Below, one piece after another: positions 28,483 to 57,156 of a stretch of 64,000 nucleotides of DNA (position 1 is its first letter; each line of letters opens with the position of its first letter). The translations under genes and the position numbers were made by a program. The notes beneath the pieces are model-generated. The model made no database searches. It had not been told where the DNA came from and saw only the letters and a program-made list of their open reading frames with translations. The stretch comes from Candidatus Limiplasma pullicola (lineage in GTDB: Bacteria > Bacillota > Clostridia > Christensenellales > Aristaeellaceae). The stretch covers positions 1 through 64,000 of the forward strand of contig DVIV01000023.1 of NCBI GenBank assembly GCA_018710985.1, written 5' to 3'.

Positions 28483-28731
28483 CGTTCATGCCGGCGCGGG
28501 GCCGGCAACTGACTGTCAAAGAACCCGTTTGGGAGGTTCGGAGGGCGAAGTCCTCCGAGCTGTATTCCGAATCCAGCGACATGTGCGGTGGATTCGGAAG
28601 CCTTGCGTAGCAAGGTTTCCCTGCGCGTTTCCCCGGCCGCGCCGCAGGCGCAGGGGAAACGTGTTCTGTCGGAAAAGATCGCCAAAGGCGAGCTTTTTCG
28701 ACAGGCGTTCATGCCGGCGCGGGGCCGGCAA
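28483..28731. mobile_element. Multi-hairpin element (copy 2) with flanking 26-bp direct repeats
   Basis: A perfect 26-bp direct repeat at 28483-28508 and 28706-28731 (each holding a TGCCGGC/GCCGGCA stem-loop) encloses 197 bp. The core starts CTGACTGTCAAAGAACCC and contains in order a CGGAGGGC hairpin, GAATCCAGCGACATGTGCGG-type dyad, GGAAGCCTTGC/GCAAGGTTTCC, a long CGTTTCCCC/GGGGAAACG hairpin and TGTCGGAAAAG/CTTTTTCGACA. No gene is visible. It sits between yqfD and phoH: the right repeat carries the yqfD stop, and the left repeat ends just before the phoH GGAGG. Confidence 0.85.
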
Positions 28732-29863
28732 TGTCCATCAGCCATTCCGCGGTGGCGGTTGCGGCCAATGTATCATCTTCTATCATACAATAATCTACCC
28801 ATTTGTCAATGATCTCATAGCCATAGAGCAGGGTTTTGAGGCGCCCCAGCGCGGCGTCGCCCGCCTCGGCGCGCACCTCGGCCTCCGGGCGGCGGGCGTA
28901 TTCGAGGCTCACCTCGCGCAGCACCGTGGTTTTGCGCCACACGGGGAAGAAGCAGCCCACCACCGGCGTCTGCGTGATGTAGGCGTTGCTGGCGAGAAAA
29001 TCGGGCGTTTCGGGCGCGGCAGGCAGCGAAAACCACGGCGTTTCGATCTGCTGCACCGCCGCCTCGCGGCCGGTTTCCTCGCTGTGGATCTCCAGCATGG
29101 ACATCTCGACCGTGTGCTCAAGCCAGCAGCGGGCGATCACCGCGCCCCGCGCGGCCACGGGCACCACGGCCCCGTCCGCGCCGCGCTCCTCCCCGCGGAT
29201 GAGCACCTGCCCCGCGCGCACCGCGTCGCCCGCCTCCACCGCCGCCGTGCCCGCGTACACCCGCACGGAATCGACGATGCCATCCCGCAGGGCGACCACG
29301 TCGCCGGGCCGGGCGGAGGGCAAATCAGGCATGGGCACGCCGAGCGTCACGTCCACCACGAGCGTCACGTTGCTCACGTAGACGTGGAACCACGCCACCT
29401 CCGGGTAGCGCAGCGTGAGGCTGCGCTCCAGCGCCGTGGCGTCCAGCGCGTCGCGCCGCGCGCCGGGTACATAGCCCGCCTCCGTGAGGTAGGCGGCGAT
29501 GTCCGCGCGGTACGGCCCCGCGCCGTTGATCTCCACCCGCCACACCAGCTGCGACAGCCACAGCGCCGCCGCCAGCGCCAGCGCGGCCCCGACCAGCGCG
29601 CCGGGCCGCCGCCGCAGCGCCAGAAAAAACGCCGCCAGCTGCGCGGGGCGCTCGCGCGTGACGCGCCAGCCCTTTTCCGCGGCCAGCCGCCTGACGCGCG
29701 GCAGGTCGCGCAGGTAGCAGGCGCATTCCAGCGTGCGCCTGTCCGCGCGCCGGGCGCCAAGCAGCGGCACGCCCTCCTTTTTCAGCGTGTTCAGGAAGCG
29801 TTCCAGGTTCAGCCCCGTCAGCGTGAAGCGGCAGGTGACAAAGGGCAATCGGGGCATGTTCAC
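28709..29863 (-). CDS. yqfD: Sporulation protein YqfD
   Basis: A 384-residue membrane protein of the YqfD family, needed for spore engulfment-stage functions in Bacillus. The N-terminal region (RLPFVTCRFTLTGLNLERFLN) and one transmembrane segment (GALVGAALALAAALWLSQLVW, about 89-109) precede an extracytoplasmic domain. GTG 29863 lies 5 bases after the yqfC stop, with AAAGGA nearby; ATG 29857 is an alternative. The last eight codons are contained in the duplicated palindrome that borders the element at 28.5 kb, so the insertion left the protein intact. Confidence 0.9.
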   Translation of the reverse strand: MNMPRLPFVTCRFTLTGLNLERFLNTLKKEGVPLLGARRADRRTLECACYLRDLPRVRRLAAEKGWRVTRERPAQLAAFFLALRRRPGALVGAALALAAALWLSQLVWRVEINGAGPYRADIAAYLTEAGYVPGARRDALDATALERSLTLRYPEVAWFHVYVSNVTLVVDVTLGVPMPDLPSARPGDVVALRDGIVDSVRVYAGTAAVEAGDAVRAGQVLIRGEERGADGAVVPVAARGAVIARCWLEHTVEMSMLEIHSEETGREAAVQQIETPWFSLPAAPETPDFLASNAYITQTPVVGCFFPVWRKTTVLREVSLEYARRPEAEVRAEAGDAALGRLKTLLYGYEIIDKWVDYCMIEDDTLAATATAEWLMDIAGPAPA

Positions 29864-29870
29864 GGCGCGG

Positions 29871-30131
29871 TCATCCTTTCGGGCGGTAGCAGAGCTTTTC
29901 GATCTTGCCGAACACGATCACCCCGTCGCGGTCGTAGCGCGCGAGGGACAGCCTTTCGCCGCTGATGACCAAGAGGCCGCACAGGGTCCTGAGCGCGACC
30001 TCGGTTTCGGTGCAGGCGAAGATGCCCTGATGCTGCTCGACGATGAGCTTTTCGTCGCCCAGCAGCACCGAGCGCGGCCAGCCCAGCACCAGCTCCTGCG
30101 GAATGTCCGCGCGTTTGAGCTTCTCCAGCAC
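29871..30131 (-). CDS. yqfC: Sporulation protein YqfC
   Basis: An 86-residue YabP/YqfC-family protein with the typical end VISGERLSLARYDRDGVIVFGKIEKL. The start is GTG 30131, preceded by the purine-rich GGAAAGGGGG. It is directly upstream of yqfD, as in other spore formers. Its presence and that of yqfD are the best evidence in the window that the organism descends from an endospore former. Confidence 0.88.
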   Translation of the reverse strand: MLEKLKRADIPQELVLGWPRSVLLGDEKLIVEQHQGIFACTETEVALRTLCGLLVISGERLSLARYDRDGVIVFGKIEKLCYRPKG

Positions 30132-30193
30132 GCCGCCGCCCCCTTTCCAAAACACGGTTTGGGGAAGGATATGCGGATGGATGGGCGGGCATG

Positions 30194-30228
30194 AAAAAAA
30201 ACCGCCCGCCCCGGAGGGGGCAGGCGGC
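30194..30228 (-). terminator. Rho-independent terminator of the FucI-like operon
   Basis: On the minus strand CCGCCTGCCCC-CTCC-GGGGCGGGCGG forms a strong stem with one mismatch and is followed by TTTTTTTT. It lies 18 bases after the stop at 30247. Confidence 0.9.
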
Positions 30229-30246
30229 AGGGCACGCGATATCCGA

Positions 30247-31725
30247 TTACGCGAACGGATTCTCCGTGGGATAGGGCAGCGACGCGGGGCGGTTGTAGGC
30301 GATATCCTGTACGCCCAGGAACTTGAACACCTCAAACAGCGCCGCGCCCACATGATGGAAGGCGACCGCGCCGTGGTGCGGGTAGCGCTTGCCCACCAGC
30401 ACGTGGCGGTAGAAGCGGCCCATTTCGGGGATGGCGAACACGCCGATGCCGCCGAAGCTGCGGGTGGCCACGTCGAGCACCTCGCCCTGAGCCACGTAGG
30501 CGCGCAGCACGCCCTCGCTGTCGCACTGGAGGCGGTAGAAGGTGATGTCGCTGGCGGCGATGTCGCCCTCCAGGGTGCCGCGGGTGAAGTCCGGCTCGCT
30601 GCCCTCCGGCTCCAGCAGGCGGTGCTGGATGAGCTGGTACTTGACGGCGCGGCTCTGGCAGAGCTTGCATTCGGGGGTGTTGCCGCAGTGGAAGCCCATG
30701 AAGGTGTCGCTGAGCTTGTAGTCGTACTTGCCCTTGATGTCCTCGTCGTAGATGTAGGCGGGCACGGTGTTGTTGATGTCGAGCAAGGTCACGGCGTCGC
30801 CCGTCACGCACAGGCCGATGTACTCGCTCAGCGCGCCGTAGATGTCCACCTCGCAGGCCACGGGGATGCCGCGCCCGGCCAGGCGGGAGTTGACGTAGCA
30901 GGGCTCAAAGCCGAACTGGCTGGGGAAGGCGGGCCAGCACTTGTTGGCGAAGGCCACGTACTGGCGGGCGCCCCTGTGGTTTTCGGCCCAGTCCAGCAGC
31001 GTCAGCTCGAACTGCGCCATGCGGCGGTTGAGGTCCTCGTAGTAGGCGCCCTCGCCCATCTGCGCGGCCATGTCGCGGCACACCTCGTCGATGCGGGGGT
31101 CGTTCTCATGCTCCTTGAAGCTGACCAGCAGGTCCAGCTCGCTGTTCTCCTCGATTTCCACGCCCAGCTCGTAGAGGCCCCTGATGGGGGCGTTGCAGGC
31201 GAAGAAGTCCTGCGGCCGGGGGCCGAAGGTGATGATCTTGAGGTTCTTCACGCCGATGATGGCGCGGGCGACGGGCAAAAAGCCACGGATGCGCTGGGCG
31301 ATCTCGTCGGCCGTGCCCACGGGGGCTTCGGGAATGTAGGCGCTGAGGTGGCGCATGCCCAGGTTGTAGGAGCAGTTGAGCAGGCCGCAGTAGGCGTCGC
31401 CGCGGCCGTTGATCATGTCGCCGTCGCCCTCGGCGGCGGCCACGTACATGCACGGGCCTTCAAAGCGCTGGGCGATCAGGGTTTCGGGGGTTTCGGGGCC
31501 GAAGTTGCCCAAAAACACCACCAGGGCGTTGCAGCCGGCGGCGCGCACGTCCTCGACGGCCTTGAGGGCGTCCTTTTCGTTTTCCACGGTGACGGGGCAC
31601 TCGTAGAGGCCCTCGCCATAGGCCTTGACGATGGCGGCGCGGCGCGCCTGGCTCAGCGCGATGGGGAAGCAGTCCCGGCTGACGGCGATGATGCCGGGCT
31701 TGACCACAGGGATGTTTTGAAGCAT
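30247..31725 (-). CDS. L-fucose/L-arabinose isomerase-superfamily sugar isomerase
   Basis: A 492-residue FucI-like protein. It opens with GIIAVSRDCFP and contains the C-terminal isomerase domain with CEVDIYGALSEYIG, the DINNTVP segment, FMGFHCGNTPECKLC and HHGAVAFHHVGAALFEV. ATG 31725 has AAAGGAGA 9 bases upstream; a GTG three codons earlier lies on the ribosome-binding site itself. It is encoded with a DUF4867 protein and a xylulokinase-like kinase, so aldose-to-ketose conversion and phosphorylation are the likely steps. Which aldose is used cannot be read from sequence. Confidence 0.87.
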   Translation of the reverse strand: MLQNIPVVKPGIIAVSRDCFPIALSQARRAAIVKAYGEGLYECPVTVENEKDALKAVEDVRAAGCNALVVFLGNFGPETPETLIAQRFEGPCMYVAAAEGDGDMINGRGDAYCGLLNCSYNLGMRHLSAYIPEAPVGTADEIAQRIRGFLPVARAIIGVKNLKIITFGPRPQDFFACNAPIRGLYELGVEIEENSELDLLVSFKEHENDPRIDEVCRDMAAQMGEGAYYEDLNRRMAQFELTLLDWAENHRGARQYVAFANKCWPAFPSQFGFEPCYVNSRLAGRGIPVACEVDIYGALSEYIGLCVTGDAVTLLDINNTVPAYIYDEDIKGKYDYKLSDTFMGFHCGNTPECKLCQSRAVKYQLIQHRLLEPEGSEPDFTRGTLEGDIAASDITFYRLQCDSEGVLRAYVAQGEVLDVATRSFGGIGVFAIPEMGRFYRHVLVGKRYPHHGAVAFHHVGAALFEVFKFLGVQDIAYNRPASLPYPTENPFA

Positions 31726-31759
31726 GGTGTCCACTCTCCTTTGCAGTTTTGAAGGGCGA

Positions 31760-32392
31760 TCAGAGGTCGCCCGAGATGTCGGTGTTTTCGCCCGAAAGGC
31801 CGATCGCCGCGCCCTGCGCGGCCTCGTCGCTGTCCGGATGGGCGAGAAGCCACTTGTTGCGCGCCCAGAGCTGGCGGTCCAGGGGGTCCGGCAGGCCGGC
31901 GAGGCGGAAATCGGTGTTGGTGCCCGCGGGCAGCGCCACCATCACGCGGAAGCCCTTTTCGGGGTCAGCGTGGCAGGGGGCGTAGTGCAGCGTGGTGGCG
32001 TAGACCTCGATCAGCACGCCCGCCGGCACGCGGAAGGCGCGCACCTTCGCGGTGTCCAGCACGCCGCCCTCCATCTCGTCCTGTTTGGCCAGGAGCAAAA
32101 TGAAGTCCCCGACGCCCAGGTTGAACTCGCTGTCGCGGTGGTATTCCAGGCAGTTGAGGCGCGTGTTGTGGCCGTTGCACCAGCCCAGCTGGAACGGCAT
32201 GCCGCCAAAGAGCGCCTCGCCGATGGCCTCCGCGCCCTCGGCGGCGTGCAGCTTGTCCTCGCGGGGGGTGTAGACCACGGCGTCAGGCAGGGGCGTGGTT
32301 TTCAGGGCCTCCATCAGCCCGCCCACGGGATAGCCCTCCACCACGCGGCCGTAGGGCCTAAAGGCGGGGTCAAACACGGAAAGAATCTCCAT
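31760..32392 (-). CDS. DUF4867-family protein
   Basis: A 210-residue cupin-like protein (CLEYHRDSEFNLG near 85, VPAGVLIEVYATTLHYAPCH near 130). The two His/Glu-containing beta segments resemble the metal sites of sugar-binding cupins such as lyxose isomerase, but the family has no fixed function that I can name. DUF4867 genes commonly stand beside FucI-like isomerases, as here. It might be a mutarotase-like or accessory isomerase. GGAG-type site upstream. Confidence 0.82.
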   Translation of the reverse strand: MEILSVFDPAFRPYGRVVEGYPVGGLMEALKTTPLPDAVVYTPREDKLHAAEGAEAIGEALFGGMPFQLGWCNGHNTRLNCLEYHRDSEFNLGVGDFILLLAKQDEMEGGVLDTAKVRAFRVPAGVLIEVYATTLHYAPCHADPEKGFRVMVALPAGTNTDFRLAGLPDPLDRQLWARNKWLLAHPDSDEAAQGAAIGLSGENTDISGDL

Positions 32393-32417
32393 GGGGTATC
32401 GCTCTCCTTTCGTCCGC

Positions 32418-33941
32418 TCACAGGGCGGCCAGCCGCCCGCAGGCGGGTTTCAATGCGGGGTAGAGGCTTTCGTAGAGCCGGTAGAAGGGCTCGTAGGCGG
32501 CGGAGCGCTCCGCGTCGGGCAGCAGCGGCTCGCCGGGCCTGACCAGCGCGGCGCATGCCGAGGGCACGTCCGAGTACACGCCCGCGGCCACGCCCGCCAG
32601 AATCGCCGCGCCCAGCGCCGGGCTTTCGGGCACCTGCACGGTCTGAACCGGCAGGCCGAACACGTCGGCCATCATCTGCCGCCAGAAGGGGCTGCGCGCG
32701 CCGCCGCCGCAGGCCAGCATGCTGGAGGGCCTGACGCCCATGCCGCGCAGGATGTCGAGGTTCTGCCGCTGGGAGTAGATCACGCCCTCCATCACCGCGC
32801 GCAGCAGGTCGCGCCGGGTGTGGATGGCGCTCAGCCCGATGAACGCGCCGCGCGCGTTTGCGTCCAAAAGCGGGCTGCGCTCGCCCATCAGGTAGGGCAG
32901 AAACAGCAGCCGGTTCGCACCGATGGGGCTTTGCGCGGCCTCGCGGTTCATCAGCTCGTAGGGATCGACGCCCATCTGGGCCGCGGCCTCGCGCTCGGCC
33001 TGGCAGAACTGGTCGCGGTACCATTTCAGCGACAGGCCCGCCGCCAGCGTGCAGCTCATGTTCGTGTACGCGCCGGGCACCGCGGCGCAGAAGGTGTGCA
33101 CCCGGCCCTCGGGGTCGATGCTCACGGCGTCGGAGTGGGCGAACACCACGCCGCTGGTGCCGATGGTGGTGAACGCCTTGCCGCTCTCCGCGACGCCCGT
33201 TCCGATGGCGGCGGCCATGTTGTCGCCCGCGCCGCCGGCCACGACCGTGCCCGCGCGAAGCCCCGTCAGCGCCGCCGCTTCCGGTGTGATCGTGCCCGCC
33301 GCCTCGCAGCTTTCCACCAGCGGGGGCAAAAGGTCCATGTCAAGCCCCAATTTGTCCATGATTTCAGCCGACCAGCGCCGCGCCGGCACGTCCAGCAGGT
33401 TGGTGCCGCTGGCGTCGCTGATCTCCTGGGCGATGACGCCGGTGAGGCGGTAGCGCACGTAGTCCTTGGGCAACAGCGCGTGCCGCGCGCGTGCGAACAG
33501 CTCCGGCTGATGCCGGCGCACCCAGAGGATCTTGCCCGCGGTAAAGCCCGTCAGCGCCGGGTTGGCCGCGATCTCGATGAGGCGCTTCGCCCCCACGGCC
33601 TGCGTGATTTCGTCGCATTCCCGCTGGGTGCGGCCGTCGCACCACAGGAGGGACCGGCCCAAAGGCTCGCCCCTTTCGTCCAGCAGCACCAGCCCGTGCA
33701 TCTGCCCGCTGATGCCCAGGCCCCTGACCTCGCCGGGGGCGACGCCGCTTGCTTCCAGCACGCCCCGGATGGTGCCGACCGCGGCGTTCCACCAGTCCAG
33801 CGGGTCCTGCTCGGCCCAGCCGTTTTGCGGCTGGTAGAGCGGATACTCCACGCTCCGGCTGGCCACTTCGCGGCCCTCCGCGTCAAAGAGCACCGTCTTG
33901 GTGCCTGAGGTTCCCAAATCCACGCCAAGCAGATAGGTCAA
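32418..33941 (-). CDS. xylB: Xylulokinase
   Basis: A 507-residue FGGY kinase. YLLGVDLGTSGTKTVLFD (3-20) is the ATPase strand; GLGISGQMHGLVLLD (about 73-87) is the xylulokinase signature, and GAGDNMAAAIGTG (about 233) and ACGGGARSPFWRQMMAD follow. It phosphorylates D-xylulose in known members. The start is TTG 33941 with GAGGGAAG upstream. It is the first gene of the operon xylB-DUF4867-isomerase, with a good promoter and a palindromic operator candidate upstream. Confidence 0.9.
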   Translation of the reverse strand: MTYLLGVDLGTSGTKTVLFDAEGREVASRSVEYPLYQPQNGWAEQDPLDWWNAAVGTIRGVLEASGVAPGEVRGLGISGQMHGLVLLDERGEPLGRSLLWCDGRTQRECDEITQAVGAKRLIEIAANPALTGFTAGKILWVRRHQPELFARARHALLPKDYVRYRLTGVIAQEISDASGTNLLDVPARRWSAEIMDKLGLDMDLLPPLVESCEAAGTITPEAAALTGLRAGTVVAGGAGDNMAAAIGTGVAESGKAFTTIGTSGVVFAHSDAVSIDPEGRVHTFCAAVPGAYTNMSCTLAAGLSLKWYRDQFCQAEREAAAQMGVDPYELMNREAAQSPIGANRLLFLPYLMGERSPLLDANARGAFIGLSAIHTRRDLLRAVMEGVIYSQRQNLDILRGMGVRPSSMLACGGGARSPFWRQMMADVFGLPVQTVQVPESPALGAAILAGVAAGVYSDVPSACAALVRPGEPLLPDAERSAAYEPFYRLYESLYPALKPACGRLAAL

Positions 33942-33991
33942 CTTCCCTCATTCCTTTCGGGACGCCCGCAAAGGGACGCTTCTTTGCCGTG

Positions 33992-34005
33992 TGTGCACGA
34001 GCACA
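33992..34005. promoter_or_regulatory. Putative operator of the xylB operon
   Basis: TGTGCACGAGCACA is a palindrome with five-base arms at about +9 to +22 of the predicted transcript. A further half-site TGCAC lies 10 bases beyond. It probably binds the LacI protein encoded at 34.0-35.1 kb. Confidence 0.5.
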
Positions 34006-34020
34006 TTTTCATCTGCACAA

Positions 34021-34049
34021 AGCATACCCCAATTTCTGGCGCTTGTCAA
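34021..34049 (-). promoter_or_regulatory. Sigma-A promoter of the xylB operon
   Basis: On the minus strand TTGACA (34044-34049), a 17-base spacer and TATGCT (34021-34026). It overlaps the stop of the preceding LacI gene by a few bases. Confidence 0.75.
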
Positions 34050-35095
34050 TCCTGAAATGGGGCGTCCCGGAGGGAGGGGGAGAGGTTTTCCAGGAGCTTG
34101 ATCTGGTTTTCCATGATGATGCGGCGGTCGTCGGTCATCTCGCCCGACAGCACCATGTCAAAGGCGGCGCGCAGCGAGCGGTAGCCCTGCTCGAAGGGCT
34201 GCTGGCACACCACCGCCCGCACGATGCCCAGCCGCATCATCTCGCGGGTGGCGGGCACGTCGTCGTAGCCCACTACGCGGATGTCCCGGGCGCGGCCCGC
34301 GTCGATGATGGCGCGGCACACCCCCTCGCACCCCGCCGTGACCACAAAGACGGCGTCGATTTCGGGATGGGTACGCAGCATGTCGTGCGTGACGGCATAG
34401 GCGCGTTCGGGCTCGTCCAGGCTGTTTTCCACGGCCACCACGGGCAGGTCCGGGCAGCGCGCCAGCCGCTTGCGAAAGCCGCGCAGCCGCGCCACATGGC
34501 CCAGCAGCGTGGGCACGCCCGCCACCACGCCCACGCGGCCGCGCGCCTGGGTGATCAGCTCCATCAGGGCGGCGGCGGTGGCGCCCCCGCTCTCATAATC
34601 GCTGCCCACATAGCAGCAGCGGCTGCTGGCGGGCAGGTCGGTATTGACGGTGACGGTGGGCACGCCGCGGGCCCTGAGCTGCTGAACGCGCGCCTCCACG
34701 CGGGGGTCGTTGACGGGCTGGAGCACCAGGGCGCTGAGGGAGGGGGCCAGCTCGTCGATCAGGGCCAGCTGGCGGTCCACGTCGTAGCCGCGCATGGCGC
34801 GCCGCTCCACCGTAACGCCGTAGGGCAGCAGCTCCTGCTCCGCGCGGGCCAGCCCCGCATACACGTCGTCAAAAAAGGGGTTGCCCTCGCTGCACAGCAC
34901 CACCCCGATCACGGGCCGGCTGCGCTTGACGCTCAGGGCGCGGCCCAGCATGCTCTTGGTGTAGCCCATGCGCTCCACCGCCTGCAGCACCATGCGCTCG
35001 GTTTCGGGGCGCACCTTGCCCCGGCGGTTGATGACGCGGTCCACCGTGCCGCGGCTGACGCCGCAGATTTGCGCGATCTCCTTGATGGTGGCCAT
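34046..35095 (-). CDS. LacI-family transcriptional regulator
   Basis: A 349-residue repressor. The HTH (ATIKEIAQICGVSRGTVDRV, residues 2-21) and hinge (GYTKSMLGRALS) are followed by a ribose-binding-like effector domain with NTDLP and GYDDVPATREMM. This HTH (GTVDRVINRRGKV) is unlike that of the LacI protein at 0.2-1.2 kb, so different operators are expected. ATG 35095 has AAGGAGG 7 bases upstream. It lies directly upstream of xylB on the same strand and likely regulates it. Confidence 0.93.
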   Translation of the reverse strand: MATIKEIAQICGVSRGTVDRVINRRGKVRPETERMVLQAVERMGYTKSMLGRALSVKRSRPVIGVVLCSEGNPFFDDVYAGLARAEQELLPYGVTVERRAMRGYDVDRQLALIDELAPSLSALVLQPVNDPRVEARVQQLRARGVPTVTVNTDLPASSRCCYVGSDYESGGATAAALMELITQARGRVGVVAGVPTLLGHVARLRGFRKRLARCPDLPVVAVENSLDEPERAYAVTHDMLRTHPEIDAVFVVTAGCEGVCRAIIDAGRARDIRVVGYDDVPATREMMRLGIVRAVVCQQPFEQGYRSLRAAFDMVLSGEMTDDRRIIMENQIKLLENLSPSLRDAPFQD

Positions 35096-35128
35096 GGGCC
35101 GCCCTCCTTTCCAAGCGGGATCAGGCCC

Positions 35129-35157
35129 AGTATACCACGCCGGGCGGGACGCATCAA
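35129..35157 (-). promoter_or_regulatory. Sigma-A promoter of the second LacI gene
   Basis: On the minus strand TTGATG (35152-35157), a 17-base spacer and TATACT (35129-35134). The leader would be about 27 bases. Confidence 0.65.
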
Positions 35158-35169
35158 GGCGGGCGGCGG

Positions 35170-35195
35170 AAAAGCCCGGCGTCCGCCGGGCTTTT
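35170..35195. terminator. Symmetrical hairpin with A/T-rich ends
   Basis: AAAAGCCCGGC, GTCC and GCCGGGCTTTT give an 11-bp perfect stem that can end transcription in either direction. It stands in tandem with the stronger hairpin at 35203-35233 and insulates the LacI gene from the flavoprotein gene. Confidence 0.7.
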
Positions 35196-35202
35196 GCCAT
35201 AC

Positions 35203-35233
35203 AAAAAGCCCCGCGCGGCAAGCCGTGCGGGGC
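35203..35233 (-). terminator. Rho-independent terminator of the flavoprotein gene
   Basis: On the minus strand GCCCCGCACGGC-TT-GCCGCGCGGGGC forms a 12-bp stem with one mismatch, followed by TTTTT. It starts 27 bases after the stop codon. Confidence 0.88.
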
Positions 35234-35259
35234 AGGGCCTTGCGGCCCGGGGGGGGGAC

Positions 35260-37173
35260 TTATTCAGCGAAAGCCTGGATCAGCGCGGTGGCGATGGCCT
35301 GGCAGTCGACGGTGGCGCCGGCGATGACGTCCACTTCGGTGCTCTGGCTGTCGATCACGGAGTTCACATACTCGGCCAGCTGCTCGTCGGTGATGATCAT
35401 CTCGGAGCGGCCCTCGCCGATGGTGATGGCGGTCAGCTTGCCGCCCTCAACGGTCATCTTGACCTCGATCTTGTCGTGGAGGCCGTCCACAACCGCGGTG
35501 TACTCGCCGTCAGCGGCGTCAGCCCACGCGGGACCGGTCTTTTCTTCCTTCACGACTTCCTCGAACTGGCTCTCGCCGCCGAAAGCGGTCTGGGCCGCGG
35601 TGCGGCCGGAGAGCATGGCCTCGGAGAGGAACACGCCGTTCTGGTACAGGTTGGACACGTAGCTGCCCAGCTCGCCCGCCTCATACAGGCCGGGGATGGG
35701 GTTCTCGTTCCAGTCCAGCACGCGGCCGTCGGTATCGCGCTTGGCGCCGCCGGTGGTGGCCACGAGGGTGGGGGTCAGAGACACGGCGTAGAAGGGCGCC
35801 TTCTCGATGGGAGCCATGGTGGCGGGATCGCGGCCGAAGTCCTCGTCCACGCCCTTTTCGCACATCTCGTTGTAGCGGTCGATGGTGGCCTGCAGCTCGA
35901 CGGGGTCGCGGCCGATCTTCTCAGCCAGCTCCTCGATGGTGTCGGCCTTGATGATCCAGCCCTTTTCGATTTCGGCCAGGTTGTCGTTGGACCAGGTGTA
36001 GCCCTCGGTGGTGGTGGGCCAGCTGAGCCACTGGCTGGCGATGGAGCCGGCCTCGCGGGTGGACTCGTCGAAGATCAGGTGCACGGGCAGGGCGCGCTCG
36101 TGAGGCAGGTCAACATAGCGGCCGTACTCCATGTACTTCATGTGCTGGCGGTGATAGCCGTAGGACTCGTTGTAGAAGCGGGTGTTGTCGGAGGCAATCT
36201 CGATCCAGGAGTTGCCGGGCATGTCGAAGTTGCGCATGAAGGTGGATTCGTACTCGGGAACCTTGATGCCCAGCCAGAAGCCGCCGGACTGGGTCTGGTT
36301 CTTCATGTGCCAGATCTTGGCGCCGGCTTCCATGAGCATCTTGATGCCGTCGCCGGTGTTGCCGGGGGTGCCGGCGGTGTAGACCTCGTCCATGCCGTGG
36401 AAGTCACGCTGCATTTCGAGGTTGTTCTCGTAGCCGCCGCAGGCCAGGAGCACGCCCTTGGCGCTCTTGATGGTGTATTCGTTGCCCTCGGCGTCGGTGG
36501 CGACCACGCCGCTGACCTCACGGGTCACGGGGTCCTGCACCAGGGCGATGGCGGGGTTCTCATAGCGCACTTCGATGCCGCGGACCTTGGCGGCCTCGGC
36601 GAAGCAGCGCCACACGCCGCCGTTTTCAAACGCGCCGGAGTTCTTCTTGCGCAGGTGAGCGCTGGTGCCCTCAAACACGCTGCCGGGGAAGGTGTCGAAC
36701 TCGACCACCAGGCTGCCCCACTGCAGGTCGCCGCCGCCCACGTAACCGGCCTCATAGCCGGCGCTCTCGGCAACGCTCTCGATCCAGGGCAGCTGCTCGG
36801 CAAAGCCGTTGACCAGCCAGTCCAGGTACTCGTCGGGAATGGGGTTGGGCTCGTTGCAGGCCTCCAGGTACTTGCGGAACTCGGGCACGCCGTTTTCGGA
36901 AGGCACGATGAAGGTCTGGCCGGAGGCGATGGAGTTGCCGCCCGCCAGGGTTTCGGGCATCTTCTCCAGCACGACCACCTTGGCTTCGGGGTCGATGTCG
37001 TGGGCTTCCACGGCCGCGGCGGCGCCCGCCAGGCCGAAGCCGACGATTACGAAATCAGCTTCCTCATCCCAGGTTTCCACGGTCTGAACGGGACGCACCC
37101 ACTCAGCCGACGCAGTGACGGCCACGCTCATCAGCAGCGCTACCGTCATAAGCAGTGCCAACAGTTTCCTCAT
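35260..37173 (-). CDS. Exported FAD-dependent reductase with C-terminal FMN-binding domain
   Basis: A 637-residue flavoprotein. A signal peptide (LLALLMTVALLMSVAVTASA, AxA cleavage) is followed by an FAD_binding_2 domain of the fumarate reductase type, with VIVGFGLAGAAAAVEA (about 43-58), ALACGG-like and AGELGSYVSNLYQNG segments. An FMN_bind domain occupies about 555-637 and contains DVIAGAT, the flavinylation motif whose Thr carries covalent FMN in related proteins. Such secreted reductases use organic electron acceptors (fumarate, urocanate, cinnamates) in extracellular electron transfer. No multihaem partner is present here. A MerR regulator diverges from it. Confidence 0.92.
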   Translation of the reverse strand: MRKLLALLMTVALLMSVAVTASAEWVRPVQTVETWDEEADFVIVGFGLAGAAAAVEAHDIDPEAKVVVLEKMPETLAGGNSIASGQTFIVPSENGVPEFRKYLEACNEPNPIPDEYLDWLVNGFAEQLPWIESVAESAGYEAGYVGGGDLQWGSLVVEFDTFPGSVFEGTSAHLRKKNSGAFENGGVWRCFAEAAKVRGIEVRYENPAIALVQDPVTREVSGVVATDAEGNEYTIKSAKGVLLACGGYENNLEMQRDFHGMDEVYTAGTPGNTGDGIKMLMEAGAKIWHMKNQTQSGGFWLGIKVPEYESTFMRNFDMPGNSWIEIASDNTRFYNESYGYHRQHMKYMEYGRYVDLPHERALPVHLIFDESTREAGSIASQWLSWPTTTEGYTWSNDNLAEIEKGWIIKADTIEELAEKIGRDPVELQATIDRYNEMCEKGVDEDFGRDPATMAPIEKAPFYAVSLTPTLVATTGGAKRDTDGRVLDWNENPIPGLYEAGELGSYVSNLYQNGVFLSEAMLSGRTAAQTAFGGESQFEEVVKEEKTGPAWADAADGEYTAVVDGLHDKIEVKMTVEGGKLTAITIGEGRSEMIITDEQLAEYVNSVIDSQSTEVDVIAGATVDCQAIATALIQAFAE

Positions 37174-37377: not shown

Positions 37378-37423
37378 GGGGGTTCTTCCTGCAAGCCGCC
37401 ACGATTTTTTCAGGGGGAAAAGG

Positions 37424-38417: not shown

Positions 38418-38432
38418 AAAGGAGGTCGAAGG

Positions 38433-47627: not shown

Positions 47628-47645
47628 CATGAGGGGACCTGGGAA

Positions 47646-49765: not shown

Positions 49766-49772
49766 CGTAGCC

Positions 49773-51278
<1,506 letters not shown>

Positions 51279-51368
51279 AGGGCCCCACGTCCTTTCATAA
51301 GAATAATGGAATTGATCAGATGCATCAAATCGCTCGCAGGCCGTCATGCCGGCCTGAAAACGTCGAGA

Positions 51369-51627
51369 GGGGGAGAGGCCATGCGGCCGCTCCCCGCAGC
51401 GTACGGGCACATCCCTTTTCGGGAGGTTTGGAGGGCCGCAGCCCTCCAATAAAATCCGAATCCAGCGACATGCGCGGTGGATTCGGAAGCCTTGCGCAGG
51501 CAAGGCTTCCTTGCGGAAAACCCTGGCCGAGAGCGAAGCGAACAAGGGTTTTCCGTTTCGGCGGAAAAGACCGCGAAGCGGGCTTTTTCGACGGACTAGG
51601 GGGGAGAGGCCATGCGGCCTCTCCCCG
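51369..51627. mobile_element. Multi-hairpin element (copy 3) with flanking 28-bp direct repeats
   Basis: Direct repeats 51369-51396 and 51600-51627 (27 of 28 identical) each hold a GGGGAGAGGCC stem-loop and enclose 203 bp. The core shares the CGGAGGGC-type hairpin, the GAATCCAGCGACATG dyad, the GGAAGCCTTGC hairpin and the final CGGAAAAG/CTTTTTCG hairpin with the other copies. The fourth hairpin is replaced by an unrelated one (GGAAAACCCT/AGGGTTTTCC) of similar size. The outer right palindrome sits just after the binding-protein gene, and the rest of the insertion separates it from the ATPase gene. Confidence 0.82.
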
Positions 51628-51669
51628 TTTTTTCAGGTCAGACCCCTGATGCCTTGCTGCGGGCGCTTC

Positions 51670-52650
51670 TTAGTAGGCGCGGCCGTCCAGCACTTCCTGG
51701 GTCATGGTGATGCCCAGCTCGGACTCGGTGCCGCCCGCGACGAACACGGAGTCAGGCACGTAGGTGATGGCGGGGACTTCCTCGCCGGCTTCCAGCTTGG
51801 CGATCAGGTCGGCCACGCCCTCAGCCTGCAGGGGGTTGCACTCGACGTTGCAGTTGATCTCGCCCTCGAGGGTGAGGGTCAGGCCCTGCTTGGTGGCGTC
51901 GAAGGAGATCAGGATCACGTCGCCGCCCACGCCGTAGGTGACGCCGGCAGCCTTCATGGCGTCGATGGCGCCGTAGGCTTCGTTATCGTTCTGGCACACG
52001 ACCACGTTGAACTGGTCGGGGTAGGACTTGAGGTAGCTCTCCATGACCTGCTGGCCGCCGGCCTGGGTGAAGTCGCCGGACTGGCTGTCGAGGATCTTCC
52101 ACTCGGGATGCTCGGCGGCAACCTGGTTGAAGCCCTCGGTGCGGCCGATGGCGGCGGAGGCGCCCACGGAGCCTTCGATCACCAGGATGTTGGCCTCGGC
52201 GCCGTCGAGCTGCTCAGCCAGCCACTCGCCGGCCTGCACGCCCTCAGCCTTGCTGTCGGTGCCGATGAAGCAGGAGTACAGGGAAGGATCGGCGCTCACG
52301 GTGCGGTCAGCGATGATGACGGGGATGCCCGCGTCCTGGGCCTCCTGCAGCACCACGTCCCAGCCGGCTTCCTGCACGGGGCAGATCACGATGTAGTCCA
52401 CTTCCTGCTGGATGAAGTTGCGCACGGCCTCCATCTGGGCGGTGTGGTCGTTGTCGGCGTCCACGAAGAGCAGCTCGTAGCCGTTCTCGGCGGTGAAGGT
52501 GTTCTGATAGTCGAGGGTGTTGGCGGCGCGCCAGTCGCTCTCATGGCCGACCTGGGCGAAACCGATGGTGATGACGTCCTCGGCGGCGGCGATGGAAACC
52601 ATGCCCAGCGCAAGGATCAGAGCAAGGGAGATCGCAAGGAGCTTCTTCAT
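51670..52650 (-). CDS. Sugar-binding protein, YtfQ-like
   Basis: A 326-residue periplasmic-binding-protein type I. The signal peptide (LLAISLALILALGMVSIAAA) has an AxA cleavage site and no lipobox Cys. GFAQVGHESDWRAANT near residue 30 is the hallmark of galactofuranose-binding YtfQ, and ADRTVSADPSLYSCFIGTDS, NDNEAYGAIDAMKAAG and NCNVECNPL continue the family pattern. It feeds the YtfR/T/YjfF importer. Given araBAD in the same operon, L-arabinofuranose is a plausible ligand. Confidence 0.93.
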   Translation of the reverse strand: MKKLLAISLALILALGMVSIAAAEDVITIGFAQVGHESDWRAANTLDYQNTFTAENGYELLFVDADNDHTAQMEAVRNFIQQEVDYIVICPVQEAGWDVVLQEAQDAGIPVIIADRTVSADPSLYSCFIGTDSKAEGVQAGEWLAEQLDGAEANILVIEGSVGASAAIGRTEGFNQVAAEHPEWKILDSQSGDFTQAGGQQVMESYLKSYPDQFNVVVCQNDNEAYGAIDAMKAAGVTYGVGGDVILISFDATKQGLTLTLEGEINCNVECNPLQAEGVADLIAKLEAGEEVPAITYVPDSVFVAGGTESELGITMTQEVLDGRAY

Positions 52651-52743
52651 GATATAACCTCCATTTATTCGATTGGGCTCTCGCCTCTGTGGTTAAAATT
52701 ACACCATTTTGCACAGGATGAGAATAAAGCGAATTTCCGATTT

Positions 52744-52805
52744 GGTTGGAAATCGTTCTTTTCTGCTATCCAAAATCCGCCAAAAGGTTGAATATCGTTT
52801 TACTT
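52744..52805 (-). promoter_or_regulatory. Direct repeats upstream of the binding-protein gene, candidate response-regulator sites
   Basis: GGTTGGAAATCGTTCTTTT (52744) and GGTTGAATATCGTTTTACT (52786) are similar direct repeats exactly 42 bp apart, about four helical turns. The intervening DNA is AT-rich, and no good -35 box precedes the likely start, as expected for an activated promoter. AraC-type regulators usually bind such direct repeats. Confidence 0.45.
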
Positions 52806-54365
52806 CGGTTGATTTTCGTTTTCCCTGCGGTACTCGCTGGGGGTCATGCCGACGGTTTTTTTGAACAGATAGCTGAAATAATGGGGGTCGTTGTACCCCA
52901 CGGCGAAGGCCACCTGGGAGGAGCGCATCCCGCCCAGGCGCAGAAGCTCCTTGGCCTTGCCGATGCGAAGGGCGGTGAGGTACTCGGTGAAGGTGTAGCC
53001 CGTCTCCTGGGCAAAGACGGTCGAGAGGCGGCTGTTGGACATGCAGGCGGCGCGGGCCACGTCCTGAAGCATGAGGTTGGGCTCGGCGAAGTGCTGGGAG
53101 AGGTAGGCGCGGGCCTTGGCCACGGAGGACCCGCTTCTGGGGCTGTGCTGGTCGCGGTAGCACAGGGCGGTGCGCAGCATTTCGTAGGCGGCGTCCTCGC
53201 CCGCGCCGTCGGACCATTCGGCCTTGAGCTCCTGGGCGGGGTCGCCGCCCGCCTCGCGGATGATGCGGCTGGCGGTCATCAGCGCCTCCACATGCAGGTA
53301 GTCGGCGGCCACGGCGCTGTGCAGGTCCGCCGCGCCCAAAGAGGCCACGTATTCGCCAAAGACCTGGTCCAGCTCGTCGGCGGCGGCGTACTGCAGCCGC
53401 TCGTTGAGGGGGCGCAGGTCCAGGTCCTTGAGGGCGTCGGGGGTGTCGGCGGCCTCGCGCACGCCCACGATGCGCATGGCCGCGTCCGGGCGCGCGGCCA
53501 TCAGGTGCCGGGTGTGGCGGGCCGAGCGCATGGAGAGGCGGATATCGGCAAAGCGGCTGACGATTTCGCCGATGGCCAGCAAAATGCCGGTGCAGCCGGA
53601 GCGCTCCAGCTCGTTGAGGGCGGAGCTGGCGAAGGAATAGGCGCGCTCCTCGGTGTCGTCCTCGCTGTCGCCCAGCACCAGGGCGCGCGCGCCCAGCCTG
53701 GCGGCGCACACCTGCACGATGCCGCCGCTGCTTTCGGCCAGGGCGTAGAGCGCGGCGCGCGGCACCGAGAGGGAGCCGCCGGGGCTGGAAAACGCCATGT
53801 CGATGACCGCGTAGCACTTGGCGGCCAGGTTGATGCCCAGCGTTCGCATCTGCTCGATCATGGCGGCGGCCTCGCCCTCCTCCATGGGCTCGTCGGTAAA
53901 GAGGGAGGACAGCAGCTTTTCCCGGACGAACTGGCTGCCGGAGCGCAACCGCCTGCGCATGCTGGCCATGTCCTCGCGGGCGCGGCGCTCCTCGGCGAGG
54001 CGGGCGGAGATGCGGTCGAGCACGTCCTTGAGCTCCTGGGCGGTGATGGGCTTGAGCAGGTACTCCTTTACGCCCAGGGAGATGGCCTGGCGGGCGTAGT
54101 CGAAGTCGTCGTAGCCGGAGAGGATGACCACGCCCAGCCACGGCATCTGGCGCTTGACCTCGCGGCACAGCTGCATGCCGTCCATGAAGGGCATGCGGAT
54201 GTCGGTGATGAGGATGTCGGGGTTGGCGTCGCGGATCATGGGCAGGGCGATTTCGCCGTCGGGGGCCTCGCCCACGAGCGTGTAGCCGCTTTCCTCCCAG
54301 GGAAAGGAATTGCGGATGCCCTCGCGGATCACGATTTCGTCGTCCACCAGAAAGACCTTAACCAT
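52800..54365 (-). CDS. Response regulator with AraC-type output (YesN-like)
   Basis: A 521-residue protein. The N-terminal receiver has VFLVDDE and the phospho-acceptor Asp in LITDIRMPFMDG (about 56), and KEYLLKPI. A long middle region follows, and the C-terminal AraC HTH (about 415-515) includes VARAACMSNSRLSTVFAQE and AFAVGYNDPHYFSYLFKK. ATG 54365 has AGGAG 8 bases upstream and overlaps the kinase stop by 8 bases. It should activate the arabinose importer operon that follows on the same strand. Confidence 0.93.
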   Translation of the reverse strand: MVKVFLVDDEIVIREGIRNSFPWEESGYTLVGEAPDGEIALPMIRDANPDILITDIRMPFMDGMQLCREVKRQMPWLGVVILSGYDDFDYARQAISLGVKEYLLKPITAQELKDVLDRISARLAEERRAREDMASMRRRLRSGSQFVREKLLSSLFTDEPMEEGEAAAMIEQMRTLGINLAAKCYAVIDMAFSSPGGSLSVPRAALYALAESSGGIVQVCAARLGARALVLGDSEDDTEERAYSFASSALNELERSGCTGILLAIGEIVSRFADIRLSMRSARHTRHLMAARPDAAMRIVGVREAADTPDALKDLDLRPLNERLQYAAADELDQVFGEYVASLGAADLHSAVAADYLHVEALMTASRIIREAGGDPAQELKAEWSDGAGEDAAYEMLRTALCYRDQHSPRSGSSVAKARAYLSQHFAEPNLMLQDVARAACMSNSRLSTVFAQETGYTFTEYLTALRIGKAKELLRLGGMRSSQVAFAVGYNDPHYFSYLFKKTVGMTPSEYRRENENQPK

Positions 54366-55821
54366 CCACAATCTCCTCTCGTGTTTTTCGCGGCACGCGG
54401 AAGCTCACCCGCGTGCCCTCCGGCCCGCTTTCGATGCTCAGCCCGTCCTCCTGGTCGTAGTAGAGGCGGATGCGCCGGTCCACGTTGTTCAGGCCAAAGC
54501 CCGTGCCCGCGTTGGCGTAGGGCGCGTAGGCGGGGGGCAGCTCGCCGCGCATGCGGGCGCACACGTCGCGCAGCTGCTCGGGGGTCATGCCCCGGCCCGT
54601 GTCCTGGACGCAGAAGCACAGAAAGCCGTTTTCCTCGCGGCCCGTCACGGTGATGAGGCCGCCGCCGCGCCTGTCCTTGATGCCGTGATAGATGGCGTTT
54701 TCCACCAGCGGCTGCAACAGGAGCTTGAGCACATACACCTCGCCCAGTTCCTGAGGCACGTCGATGCGGTAACTCAGGATGTCGCGGTAGCGGGCCTTCT
54801 GGATGGAGAGGTAGCCGGAGAGGTGCCTCAGCTCCTGAGCCAGGGGAATCCAGTCCGCGCCGGAGGACAGGGAGATGCGGAAGAAGTCGCTCAGCGCCCG
54901 GGTGATATGGATGACCTCGGCGCTGTGCCCGGCCTCGGCCTGCCAGACGATGGCGTCGAGCGTGTTGTAGAGAAAGTGCGGGTTGATCTGGGCCTGCAAG
55001 GTGCGCAGCTCGGATTTTCGCAGGTTTTCCTGCTCCCTGAGGCTCTGCTCCATGAGCGATTCGAGCCGGTCGGCCATGACGTTGATGCCCTCGGTGAGGT
55101 TCTTCAGCTCGCTCAGGTCCGTGGGCGGCACGCGGGCGGAGAGGTTGCCGCCGGCCATCATGCCGGCGAAGTGCTCCAGGCGCTCGATGGGGCTGCGGAT
55201 GAGGCGCGCCATGCGCCGGCCCATGCGCGCGGAGAGGAGGAGCGCGCCCAGCAGAATCAGCGCCTCCAGCGCGGCGGAGAAGAGCACCACGCGGGTCATC
55301 TGGCGGTTGCTCTGGGCCGAGAGGCTGATCTGGGCGGAGATGTAGTCCTCCAGCATCGAATCCACCAGCGCGGCCACGTCGCGCACCTCCTCCAGCACGC
55401 GCTCGCTCTCCACCACGGGCACGTTGCCGCTCAGGTTTTCCTCGATCTGGCGCACATACTGGGTCAGGGTTTCCATGGTGCGGCGGGCCACGGTCAATTC
55501 CAGGCGCGCGCCGGCCCCGTCCTTGGCGGTCATGGCGTCCAGGGCCTGGTTGACCTGCTCGATGGCCTCGTAGACGCCGCAGGTTTCAAACGTGGCGCGG
55601 CCCGAAACGGTGACCCAGACCATTTCCGGGATATCCGTGGAGACGATGGGCTTGAGCGCGGCCACCTCCTCCATGCGCGAAACCGATGCCTGGTACCACG
55701 CCGCGTTGACCAGCATCAGCGCCAGGCTGATGACCGCCGGCAGCACCAGAATCGCCGTGAGCGTGCGGGAGGCCATGTTGACCTGGCCGGTGATGCTCTG
55801 TCCGCTTCTGAGGCGCTTCAC
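54358..55821 (-). CDS. Sensor histidine kinase (YesM-like)
   Basis: A 487-residue membrane kinase. It has a transmembrane segment near 20-40, an extracytoplasmic loop, a second near 185-205, a HAMP domain and the His_kinase domain with QAQINPHFLYNTLDAIVW (His near 281). The ATP-binding domain has a Gly-rich DTGRGM and GTGFGLNNVDRRI. GTG 55821, two bases after the lipoprotein stop, is the likely start. It pairs with the response regulator next to it. The extracellular loop probably contacts the neighbouring binding lipoprotein. Confidence 0.9.
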   Translation of the reverse strand: MKRLRSGQSITGQVNMASRTLTAILVLPAVISLALMLVNAAWYQASVSRMEEVAALKPIVSTDIPEMVWVTVSGRATFETCGVYEAIEQVNQALDAMTAKDGAGARLELTVARRTMETLTQYVRQIEENLSGNVPVVESERVLEEVRDVAALVDSMLEDYISAQISLSAQSNRQMTRVVLFSAALEALILLGALLLSARMGRRMARLIRSPIERLEHFAGMMAGGNLSARVPPTDLSELKNLTEGINVMADRLESLMEQSLREQENLRKSELRTLQAQINPHFLYNTLDAIVWQAEAGHSAEVIHITRALSDFFRISLSSGADWIPLAQELRHLSGYLSIQKARYRDILSYRIDVPQELGEVYVLKLLLQPLVENAIYHGIKDRRGGGLITVTGREENGFLCFCVQDTGRGMTPEQLRDVCARMRGELPPAYAPYANAGTGFGLNNVDRRIRLYYDQEDGLSIESGPEGTRVSFRVPRKTREEIVDG

Positions 55822-55823
55822 GG

Positions 55824-56810
55824 TCAGTACCCCCGCGGCGCCAGGTCGCTCAGGTCGTCGAACTCGGTGAATACCTCTTCGTCGGGATGGCTCGTTTTGG
55901 GCACGCTTTCGCCCGCGGCGAGCTTCTTGGCCAGCTCCATGACCGCGTCGCCCAGGTTGGGGGTGCACTCGACCACGCAGTTGATTTCCCCGGCCTTGAG
56001 CAGGTCGATGGCGGCCTGCTCGCCGTCCACGGTGATGATGATGATGTCGCTGCCCGGCGCAAGCCCGTATTCGCGGATGGCGTCGATGGCGCCCAGGGTC
56101 ATGCCGTCGTTGTGGGAGTAGAGCACGTCGATGTCCTCGCCGTACTTGTCCAGGAGGTAACGCATGCACTCCTCGCCCTTGGACACGAGGAAATCGCCGG
56201 AGATGCTCTCCAGCACCGTGAAGCGCTCGTCGCCCTCGATGGTCTCATGAAAGCCCTGATGGCGCTGGCGCTGGGGCGTGGAGTCCTCGGTGCCGGTGAT
56301 CTCGACGATGTTGAGGTGGCTGGCGCCCATGGCGTCGGCCTTTTTGAGGAGGAACTCGCCCGCGCTGCGGCCCTCCTTGATGAAGTCCGCGCCCACGAAG
56401 CAGGCGTAGAGCGATTCGTCCTGCGTGGTGATGAGCCGGTCCACCAGAATGACGGGGATGCCGGCGGTTTTGGCCTCGGTGAGCACGGTGTCCCAGCCGT
56501 CCTCCACGATGGGCGCGAAGGAAATCACGTCCACCCGGTAGGAGATGAAGGAGCGGATGGCGTCGATCTGCTTTTCCTGCTTCTGGTAGGCGTTGAGCAT
56601 CATCAGGCTGACGCCGTGGCGCTCGGCGGCCTCCTCGATGCTGCGCGTGCTGCCCACGCGCCAGGCGCTTTCCGACCCCAGCTGGGAAAAGCCCAGCAGC
56701 ACGGGCGCGGCGGTGGGCGCGGCGGCCTCGGGCGCGCCGTCCGTGGGACCGCATGCGCAAAGCAGCGCCCCCAGAAGGCACACGGTCAACACGGCTTTCA
56801 TGCGTTTCAT
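55824..56810 (-). CDS. Sugar-binding lipoprotein, sensory component
   Basis: A 328-residue type I binding protein with a lipobox LCAC (Cys20), so it is membrane-anchored. Its GFSQLGSESAWRVGSTRSI matches the YtfQ-type GFxQxGxESxWR region, so it should bind the same type of sugar as the importer protein. Its gene is joined to the kinase gene (two-base gap) instead of to permeases. This suits a three-component sensor in which the lipoprotein presents the sugar to the kinase, as in other LytS/YesM-like systems. Confidence 0.9.
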   Translation of the reverse strand: MKRMKAVLTVCLLGALLCACGPTDGAPEAAAPTAAPVLLGFSQLGSESAWRVGSTRSIEEAAERHGVSLMMLNAYQKQEKQIDAIRSFISYRVDVISFAPIVEDGWDTVLTEAKTAGIPVILVDRLITTQDESLYACFVGADFIKEGRSAGEFLLKKADAMGASHLNIVEITGTEDSTPQRQRHQGFHETIEGDERFTVLESISGDFLVSKGEECMRYLLDKYGEDIDVLYSHNDGMTLGAIDAIREYGLAPGSDIIIITVDGEQAAIDLLKAGEINCVVECTPNLGDAVMELAKKLAAGESVPKTSHPDEEVFTEFDDLSDLAPRGY

Positions 56811-56850
56811 GGCGATCAGCTCCCGGCAGCGCGCAAATATCTTTTCAAAA

Positions 56851-56879
56851 AGTATAGCATTTTTTTGTCAGCTTGTCTA
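56851..56879 (-). promoter_or_regulatory. Promoter of the three-component sensor operon
   Basis: On the minus strand TAGACA (56874-56879), a 17-base spacer and TATACT (56851-56856). The start near 56844 gives a leader of about 34 bases. Confidence 0.65.
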
Positions 56880-56906
56880 TTGAGAGACTGCGGAAAGACA
56901 AAACGC

Positions 56907-57156
56907 CGGGGACGGCTTGCGCCGTCCCCGCAGCGTGTCGAAAAAGCTCGCCTGCGGCGATCTTTTCCGCCAGGACACGTTTCCCCTGCGCCTGCGGCGC
57001 GGCCGGGGAAACGTGCAAGGAAACCTTGCTGCGCAAGGCTTCCGAATCCACCGCACATGTCGCTGGATTCGGATTCCATTCGGAGGGCTGCGGCCCTCCG
57101 AGCCTCCCCAAAGGGTTTTTTGACAGTCTGCGGGGACGGCTTGCGCCGTCCCCGCA
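56907..57156. mobile_element. Multi-hairpin element (copy 4) with flanking 26-bp direct repeats
   Basis: A perfect 26-bp direct repeat at 56907-56932 and 57131-57156 (each a GGGGACGGC-TTGC stem-loop) encloses 198 bp. Read on the minus strand it is nearly identical to copy 2, with start CAGACTGTCAAAAAACCC and end CTTTTTCGACACGC, and each of the five hairpins is paired. The orientation is opposite to copies 2 and 3. It lies between the beta-CASP gene and the sensor promoter. Confidence 0.85.

What the first reader, a model, noticed from the sequence alone, without database searches (positions are those of the whole stretch)
28483..57156. A family of ~200-bp multi-hairpin elements, each bounded by a locus-specific 26-28 bp palindromic direct repeat
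Copies at 28483-28731, 51369-51627 and 56907-57156 share a core of 197-203 bp with conserved ends (CAGACTGTCAAA... and ...CTTTTTCGACA) and five successive hairpins. Seen directly: each copy is enclosed by a direct repeat (26, 28 and 26 bp) that is unrelated between loci, and every one is itself a stem-loop of 7-11 bp. This means the element did not bring the repeats with it; it entered an existing hairpin and duplicated it. Duplications of 26 bp are long for known transposases. No gene is present, so the element would be moved in trans or by an RNA-templated route. I know of no described element with this pattern.
Basis: partly seen in the sequence, partly recalled or inferred. Interest (0 to 1): 0.88.

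Follow-up and report, generated by a model that had tools for sequence, protein, structure and literature searches.

The report
Mobile element that duplicates DNA hairpins
Small gene-less mobile DNA elements in an uncultured bacterium insert at the foot of existing DNA hairpins, often transcription terminators, and leave a copy of the whole hairpin on both sides; they share their ends with a known transposase family, so the mover is ordinary but the way it marks its target is unusual.

Summary
Three ~200-bp copies in the window are each enclosed by an unrelated 26-28 bp hairpin repeat. Elsewhere in the genus, 27 of 47 copies with both flanks have a flanking repeat above the 99% null in one sample and 31 of 35 in a second. 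The repeat is a hairpin whose foot touches the element end. At copy 1, seven of nine relatives show one hairpin, so it was there first. The element is a MITE with imperfect ends CAGnCTGTCrAAAAA. An IS1182-family IS with such ends lies in the same genus and, cut by contig ends, in the window's own genome. Of 14 plasmid IS1182 loci fetched, nine have CAGACTG ends, and all nine lie between hairpins: identical in six (22-35 bp), different in three. Published relatives that I could read about leave 4-bp repeats or delete the hairpin (IS1272); whole-hairpin duplication appears there only as a hypothetical pathway (PMC5678879). I file it as an IS1182-type MITE whose target duplication length follows target secondary structure: a new variant of a known kind.

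The parts
28483..28508 (.). left hairpin repeat (target duplication) of copy 1
   Evidence: a single copy at the orthologous place in G007
28509..28705 (+). MITE core, copy 1 (197 bp)
28664..28705 (+). right-end hairpin of the MITE, next to the terminal repeat
28706..28731 (.). right hairpin repeat of copy 1; holds the stop codon (28709-28711) of the minus-strand ORF 28709-29863
51369..51396 (.). left hairpin repeat of copy 2
51397..51599 (+). MITE core, copy 2, degenerate left end
51600..51627 (+). right hairpin repeat of copy 2 followed by a T tail (terminator-like)
56907..56932 (.). hairpin repeat of copy 3, low-coordinate side
56933..57130 (-). MITE core, copy 3
57131..57156 (.). hairpin repeat of copy 3, high-coordinate side
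1..128 (-). part of a second MITE (family B, 171 bp, same ends, other inner hairpins), cut by the window start
35168..35196 (.). unoccupied single hairpin; the matching hairpin in G007 is occupied by a MITE (right flank 99% identical, left flank differs)

Best explanation
The element is a MITE mobilised in trans by an IS1182-family DDE transposase. Shown by sequence: terminal inverted repeats of the same kind as in an IS1182-family IS, a hairpin at the foot of most ends, duplication of that hairpin in most copies, and single-hairpin sites in relatives. Inferred: the target hairpin is extruded as a cruciform; [quoted passage not shown] gap repair then copies the whole hairpin to both sides, so that duplication length follows hairpin length. 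Where the target is a terminator, the A tract stays with the left copy and the T tail with the right copy. Copies between two different hairpins are most likely products of intramolecular transposition or of recombination between copies (inferred; one split hairpin pair was found).
For: Flanking repeats above the 99% null in 27 of 47 and 31 of 35 copies. A stem of 8 or more pairs touches the left end in 69 of 76 and the right end in 64 of 79 distinct ends, against 17% and 23% in shuffles and 20% and 19% at random places. Foot-to-element gap 0 nt in 48 of these 69 and 42 of these 64; 4 or more A in the 8 nt before the left hairpin in 47 of 69, 4 or more T in the 8 nt after the right one in 36 of 64, background 7%. 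Repeat length follows hairpin length, r=0.77 for 52 of 82 copies (partly circular). Single hairpins at occupied sites in relatives. Partner IS with such ends; IS1182 is its best transposase model, E=8.5e-66. The MITE right end matches the transposase-proximal IS end at 33 of 47 bases; the part inside the first 9 bases scores above all 1000 shuffles. Nine of nine plasmid IS1182 loci with CAGACTG ends lie between hairpins, six of them identical. Two complete copies in G000 (L291, L295) share one hairpin, split between them.
Against: No transposition was observed. The one long partner in the genus (L090) has a split transposase frame and lies between two different hairpins. In the window's own genome the partner is seen only at contig ends. 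20 of 47 and 4 of 35 copies show no repeat above the 99% null. In the second sample one cross-locus pair scored 26, and only 17 of 35 copies exceed that. Other IS1182-family members behave differently: 4-bp repeats for MITEPye1, ISPse1 and ISCaa15, hairpin loss for IS1272, no hairpin duplication seen for L085, L336, L344 and L418. At copy 1, one of nine relatives (G016) shows no hairpin and one (G003) no clear one.
Confidence: 0.85

Rival explanations
1. RNA-templated insertion: the element is copied from RNA and inserted at hairpins, as group IIC introns do next to terminators (recalled).
For: Inner hairpins show compensatory changes (18 of 48 pairs, 0 of 500 shuffles as high), so a structured RNA is possible; many targets are terminator-like.
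Against: Terminal inverted repeats of the kind found in a DDE insertion sequence. The transposase-bearing form has the same target habit. No Rfam family reaches its gathering score in the window. Palindrome symmetry could also be kept by DNA-level template switching. A reverse transcriptase was not searched for.
Confidence: 0.04
2. The flanking hairpins travel with the element as a cassette, or spread by recombination.
For: Some copies lie between different hairpins; nested copies and longer derivatives exist.
Against: Repeats are mostly unrelated between loci: of 33 left-right hairpin pairs scoring 17 or more, 26 belong to one copy; of the other seven, by my reading of the places, five join contig-end halves, one compares G007 with G000, and one is a split pair in G000. 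Relatives keep a single, often diverged, hairpin at the same place.
Confidence: 0.03
3. Insertion with a random or fixed long duplication (as recalled for IS1634-type elements) that merely happens at terminators.
For: Long variable target duplications are known for IS1634 (recalled, not read).
Against: Hairpin feet coincide with the element ends, mostly at 0 nt; repeat length follows hairpin length (partly circular); the partner transposase scores to IS1182.
Confidence: 0.06
4. Assembly artefact: repeats of about 200 bp misjoined in draft assemblies.
For: The genomes are fragmented drafts and many copies lie at contig ends. Some two-hairpin copies could be misjoins.
Against: Matching hairpins on both sides do not follow from misjoins. 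Nine plasmid records, eight titled complete and one a circular assembly, show the same pattern, three of them the two-hairpin form.
Confidence: 0.02

Closest known systems
IS1182-family insertion sequences (transposase model NF033551)
   Same: Partner transposase scores best to this family; terminal inverted repeats; palindromic targets are noted for some members (Siguier 2015 as cited in PMC4923244 and PMC5678879).
   Different: Here the whole target hairpin is duplicated (20-46 bp in the 52 copies). Members read about here have 4-bp repeats (ISPse1, ISCaa15) or none (IS1272). Recalled, unread: ISfinder lists repeats of up to 60 bp and palindromic targets for this family, so part of the trait may be on record there.
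IS1272 / TnSha1 (Staphylococcus), stem-loop-replacing transposition
   Same: Targets hairpins, many of them terminators, with no sequence consensus (PMC4923244 passages; PMC5678879 sections 22 and 29).
   Different: IS1272 removes the hairpin wholly or partly and leaves no target duplication; here it is kept on both sides. PMC5678879 draws duplication as pathway b of a model, without an example in the parts read.
MITEPye1 of Paracoccus yeei and the ISMac2-type MITEs of Methanosarcina acetivorans (IS1182-type MITEs)
   Same: About 160 bp, no gene, ends like IS1182 elements; MITEPye1 folds into long stem-loops (PMC11578231 and PMC3852290 passages).
   Different: Direct repeats of 4 bp (MITEPye1; one ISMac2 type as I read its table row) or 0; no hairpin target reported in the passages read.
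IS110/IS1111 and other elements that target REP hairpins
   Same: Insertion at palindromic repeats (IS1111 in QMITE2, PMC10969869 passage).
   Different: A fixed repeated target sequence and no long duplication (recalled); here the targets differ from locus to locus.

Membership tests
MITE | short, no transposase gene | tested here: met
   cores of 197-203 bp in the window, too short for a transposase gene
MITE | terminal inverted repeats shared with an autonomous element | tested here: met
   left end CAGACTGTCAAAGAA of L090 is identical in copies such as L082 and has one mismatch in window copies 1 and 3; right end 33 of 47 bases to the IS end in L199, 30 to that in L090
MITE | target duplication and empty sites | tested here: met
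   single-hairpin sites
MITE | moved in trans by the partner transposase | not testable with these tools
   needs a transposition assay
IS1182 family (partner IS) | transposase scores to the family model | tested here: met
   NF033551 is the best NCBIfam model: 222.8 bits for L090 (308-aa piece of a split frame) and 207.2 for L190 (200 aa, cut by contig end, a second end group); both are below the whole-protein cut-off of 270; the 517-aa genus member L088, whose ends were not found, scores 352.8
IS1182 family (partner IS) | target repeat of 4 bp as in published members read here | tested here: not met
   hairpin-length repeats; the trait varies in the family, IS1272 has none
IS1272-type stem-loop replacement | target hairpin removed on insertion | tested here: not met
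   hairpin present on both sides
group IIC intron or other retroelement | known intron RNA in the element | tested here: not met
   no Rfam match at gathering scores in the window
group IIC intron or other retroelement | reverse transcriptase acting in trans | not tested
   no search was made

The most novel reading that the evidence does not exclude
A group of IS1182-family DDE transposases with CAGACTG-type ends, found here in Bacillota and Alphaproteobacteria and with a heavy MITE burden in one genus, reads DNA secondary structure and not sequence. It acts at the feet of an extruded cruciform, so that its target duplication has no fixed length but equals the hairpin. It can therefore insert at terminators and operon hairpins and leave both neighbours' ends intact.
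Probability: 0.55. Interest if true: 0.75.

Novelty: new variant of a known kind. Interest (0 to 1): 0.62.

Why it matters
DDE transposases normally leave a duplication of fixed length, set by the spacing of the two active sites (established knowledge). Here the length appears to be set by the folded target. If a cruciform is the substrate, these elements are natural markers of hairpin extrusion in living cells and a model for structure-guided integration. They leave a copy of the target hairpin on each side, a mild way to enter a compact genome. The same family removes hairpins in IS1272, so a comparison of the two could show what decides between loss and duplication.

Tried and rejected
Rfam search of the window found nothing at gathering scores. 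Copy 3 of the MITE has no near match in the phage records, and one 31-base stretch no exact match in viral contigs. At window copies 2 and 3 no empty site could be shown: the G007 contigs break at the hairpin, and L268 (G003) and L269 (G015) show no matching hairpin. Other IS1182-type hits in the genus (L086-L089, L091, L092) gave no matching ends, and L085 has other ends. Of order-level loci fetched, 11 of 14 were examined: L344 has other ends and no hairpin duplication, the other ten gave no convincing ends; L343, L350 and L351 were not examined. The 14 plasmid loci were picked by hand for spread, skipping most Enterococcus rows: 6 of 30 rows, 6 of 60, 2 of 30. Nine had CAGACTG ends and were counted; L332 and L333 are cut by the record end, L336 and L418 have other ends, L414 had no clear end. 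The fifth fold (35144-35180) was misplaced and is not used. The r is inflated to an unknown degree because the hairpin was sought in a region that grows with the repeat. In one search the locator missed the copy-1 spot in G007, G015, G012 and G016 and found none in G008; for these the hairpin was read by eye.

Papers: PMC5678879 outline with abstract, sections 22 and 29 (part 1) and passages; PMC4923244, PMC3852290, PMC10969869, PMC3281130, PMC9208149, PMC11578231, PMC3196728 passages only; others listing only. That whole-hairpin duplication is not in print rests on the searches in an open-access library. A 2014 review of insertion sequences was not held. I recall, unread, that ISfinder lists IS1182 repeats of up to 60 bp and palindromic targets.
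Full report
What is there. Each core of 197-203 bp lies between two copies of a hairpin, 26, 28 and 26 bp, unrelated between the loci. The window belongs to a draft genome of 2.78 Mb in 66 contigs. A same-genus genome, G003, matches by several contig lengths the record 'Candidatus Limiplasma stercoravium', class Clostridia; that the window comes from this group is an inference.

Extent of the family. A search with copy 1 matched 13 of 17 genomes of the genus (the window's own included) and, with short hits only, 2 of 43 others. Two further searches, with 40 candidates scored in most genomes, list dozens of matches each in G001, G002, G009 and G011, part of them fragments. A second family with the same ends but other inner hairpins (family B, 171 bp) is present in the window's genome. 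Of 38 loci fetched there because they had matched, 34 gave some hit to it, some at the shared ends only, six over the full length; part of one lies at window 1-128. Longer derivatives and nested copies exist.

Flanking repeats. In the first sample, 47 of 56 distinct copies of 150 bp or more had both flanks. Twenty-seven had a flanking direct repeat above the 99% point of a cross-locus null (2162 pairs) and 24 above its maximum. The second sample was 36 other places in G001, G002, G006, G009 and G011, chosen from the listings without regard to flanks; four of these genomes also gave places to the first sample. Thirty-five had both flanks, 31 exceeded the 99% null (1190 pairs) and 17 exceeded its maximum of 26. 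Copies without a repeat include truncated and mosaic ones, and some that lie between two different hairpins (by eye).

The repeat is a hairpin, and the element sits at its foot. Over both MITE families, a stem of 8 or more pairs touches the left end in 69 of 76 distinct left ends and the right end in 64 of 79 right ends, against 17% and 23% in shuffles and 20% and 19% at random places. The gap is 0 nt in 48 of these 69 and 42 of these 64. An A-rich tract precedes the left hairpin in 47 of 69 and a T-rich tract follows the right one in 36 of 64, background 7%. So many targets look like intrinsic terminators whose A tract stays on the left and whose T tail stays on the right. Repeat length follows hairpin length (r=0.77, 52 of 82 copies; within 3 nt in 35 of 52; the measure is partly circular).

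Single-hairpin sites. Nine relatives were read at the place of copy 1. G007 has one hairpin after a 97% identical left flank; its contig ends 51 bp further on and the next contig begins with the hairpin, so an occupied version in the same sample is not excluded. G015 has one diverged hairpin in an unbroken contig; G013, G004 and G005 have stems of 8, 7 and 6 pairs; G012 and G008 have short ones by eye; G003 has no clear one and G016 none. In copy 1 the right repeat holds the stop codon of one gene, and an apparent ribosome-binding site of the next gene (minus strand) follows the left repeat, so both genes seem to keep their ends. A hairpin occupied in G007 is single at window 35168-35196, though the left flanks differ there. 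Two sites occupied in G001 carry single hairpins: the first in G009, G002 and G006, the second in G011. One hairpin holds a family A copy in G007 and a longer family-B-like element in G000, where it is split over two contigs; this suggests repeated use of one target. For copies 2 and 3 no empty site could be shown.

The partner. The ends form imperfect inverted repeats, CAGnCTGTCrAAAAA. L090 in G002 is a 1493-bp insertion sequence with ends CAGACTGTCAAAGAA and TTTTTTGACAGACTG, a transposase in two frames of 308 and 160 aa, and a hairpin at each end, but two different ones. The window's own genome has related transposase starts (88-89% over 24-38 residues) at three contig ends, with ends of the same kind next to a hairpin; the hairpin is clear in L198 and L199 and has a mismatch in L196. 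The transposase scores best to the IS1182 family; the pieces are below the whole-protein cut-off. The MITE's right end resembles the transposase-proximal end of the IS over 47 bases (33 identical), and the part inside the first 9 bases scores above all 1000 single-base shuffles.

Generality. Of 14 plasmid loci fetched, nine had CAGACTG ends. All nine have a hairpin at both ends. In six the hairpins are identical: Peribacillus pB 24 bp, Cytobacillus firmus 35 bp, Rhizobium sp. Q54 25 bp, R. leguminosarum 23 bp, Macrococcoides canis 22 bp and Enterococcus faecium ISEfa7 23 bp. In three they differ. Eight of the nine records are titled complete and one is a circular assembly, so draft assembly hardly explains either form. 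For the two-hairpin form, one case of exchange was seen: two complete family B copies in G000, L291 and L295, share one hairpin, on the left of one and on the right of the other.

Inner structure. On 28 copies, 18 of 48 predicted pairs show changes on both sides (0 of 500 shuffles as high; slid versions 1-6 pairs); the number of further pair types is less striking (7 of 500 shuffles as high). The structure was derived from the same alignment and the copies are related, so the shuffles are not probabilities. The inner hairpins seem to be kept as hairpins. Whether this serves RNA, transposase binding or DNA-level symmetry is open.

Mechanism and rank. The simplest reading is transposition by a DDE enzyme that joins the element to the 5' feet of an extruded cruciform, followed by gap repair. 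PMC5678879 drew this as pathway b of a model and reported the opposite outcome, hairpin loss, for IS1272. PMC4923244 also reports hairpin targeting with partial deletion and no duplication. IS1182-type MITEs and ISs with 4-bp repeats are in print. I therefore rank the system as a new variant of a known kind. Its striking point is a target duplication whose length follows target folding. No experiment was done; cruciform recognition is inferred.

Noticed in passing
window 1-128: Part of a second MITE family (family B) with the same ends and other inner hairpins; more copies in the genome, several at contig ends.
   Followed up: partly
L283, L284, L293, L299: Longer family-B derivatives (about 400 to more than 780 bp) with extra hairpin-rich modules between the same ends; inner hairpins look exchangeable like modules.
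   Followed up: no
L190 (G000:C57), L191 (G007:C59): A second IS1182-type transposase group whose end CAGACCGTTGACAAAA follows a hairpin; both are cut by contig ends.
   Followed up: partly
L027 and L047: A MITE copy that seems inserted in the terminal hairpin of another copy (nested), upstream of what looks like the same gene in G000 and G007.
   Followed up: no
L334, L337, L412, L090, L050, L052: IS or MITE copies between two different hairpins; they may mark inversions or deletions made by intramolecular transposition or recombination.
   Followed up: partly
L291 (354-525) and L295 (299-470): Two complete family B copies in G000 share one hairpin, split left and right between them, as expected after exchange between copies.
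   Followed up: partly
L287 (G000:C63 start) and L196 (G000:C16 start): Similar hairpins next to a family B left end and an IS right end at two contig starts; the two element types may have used the same target.
   Followed up: no
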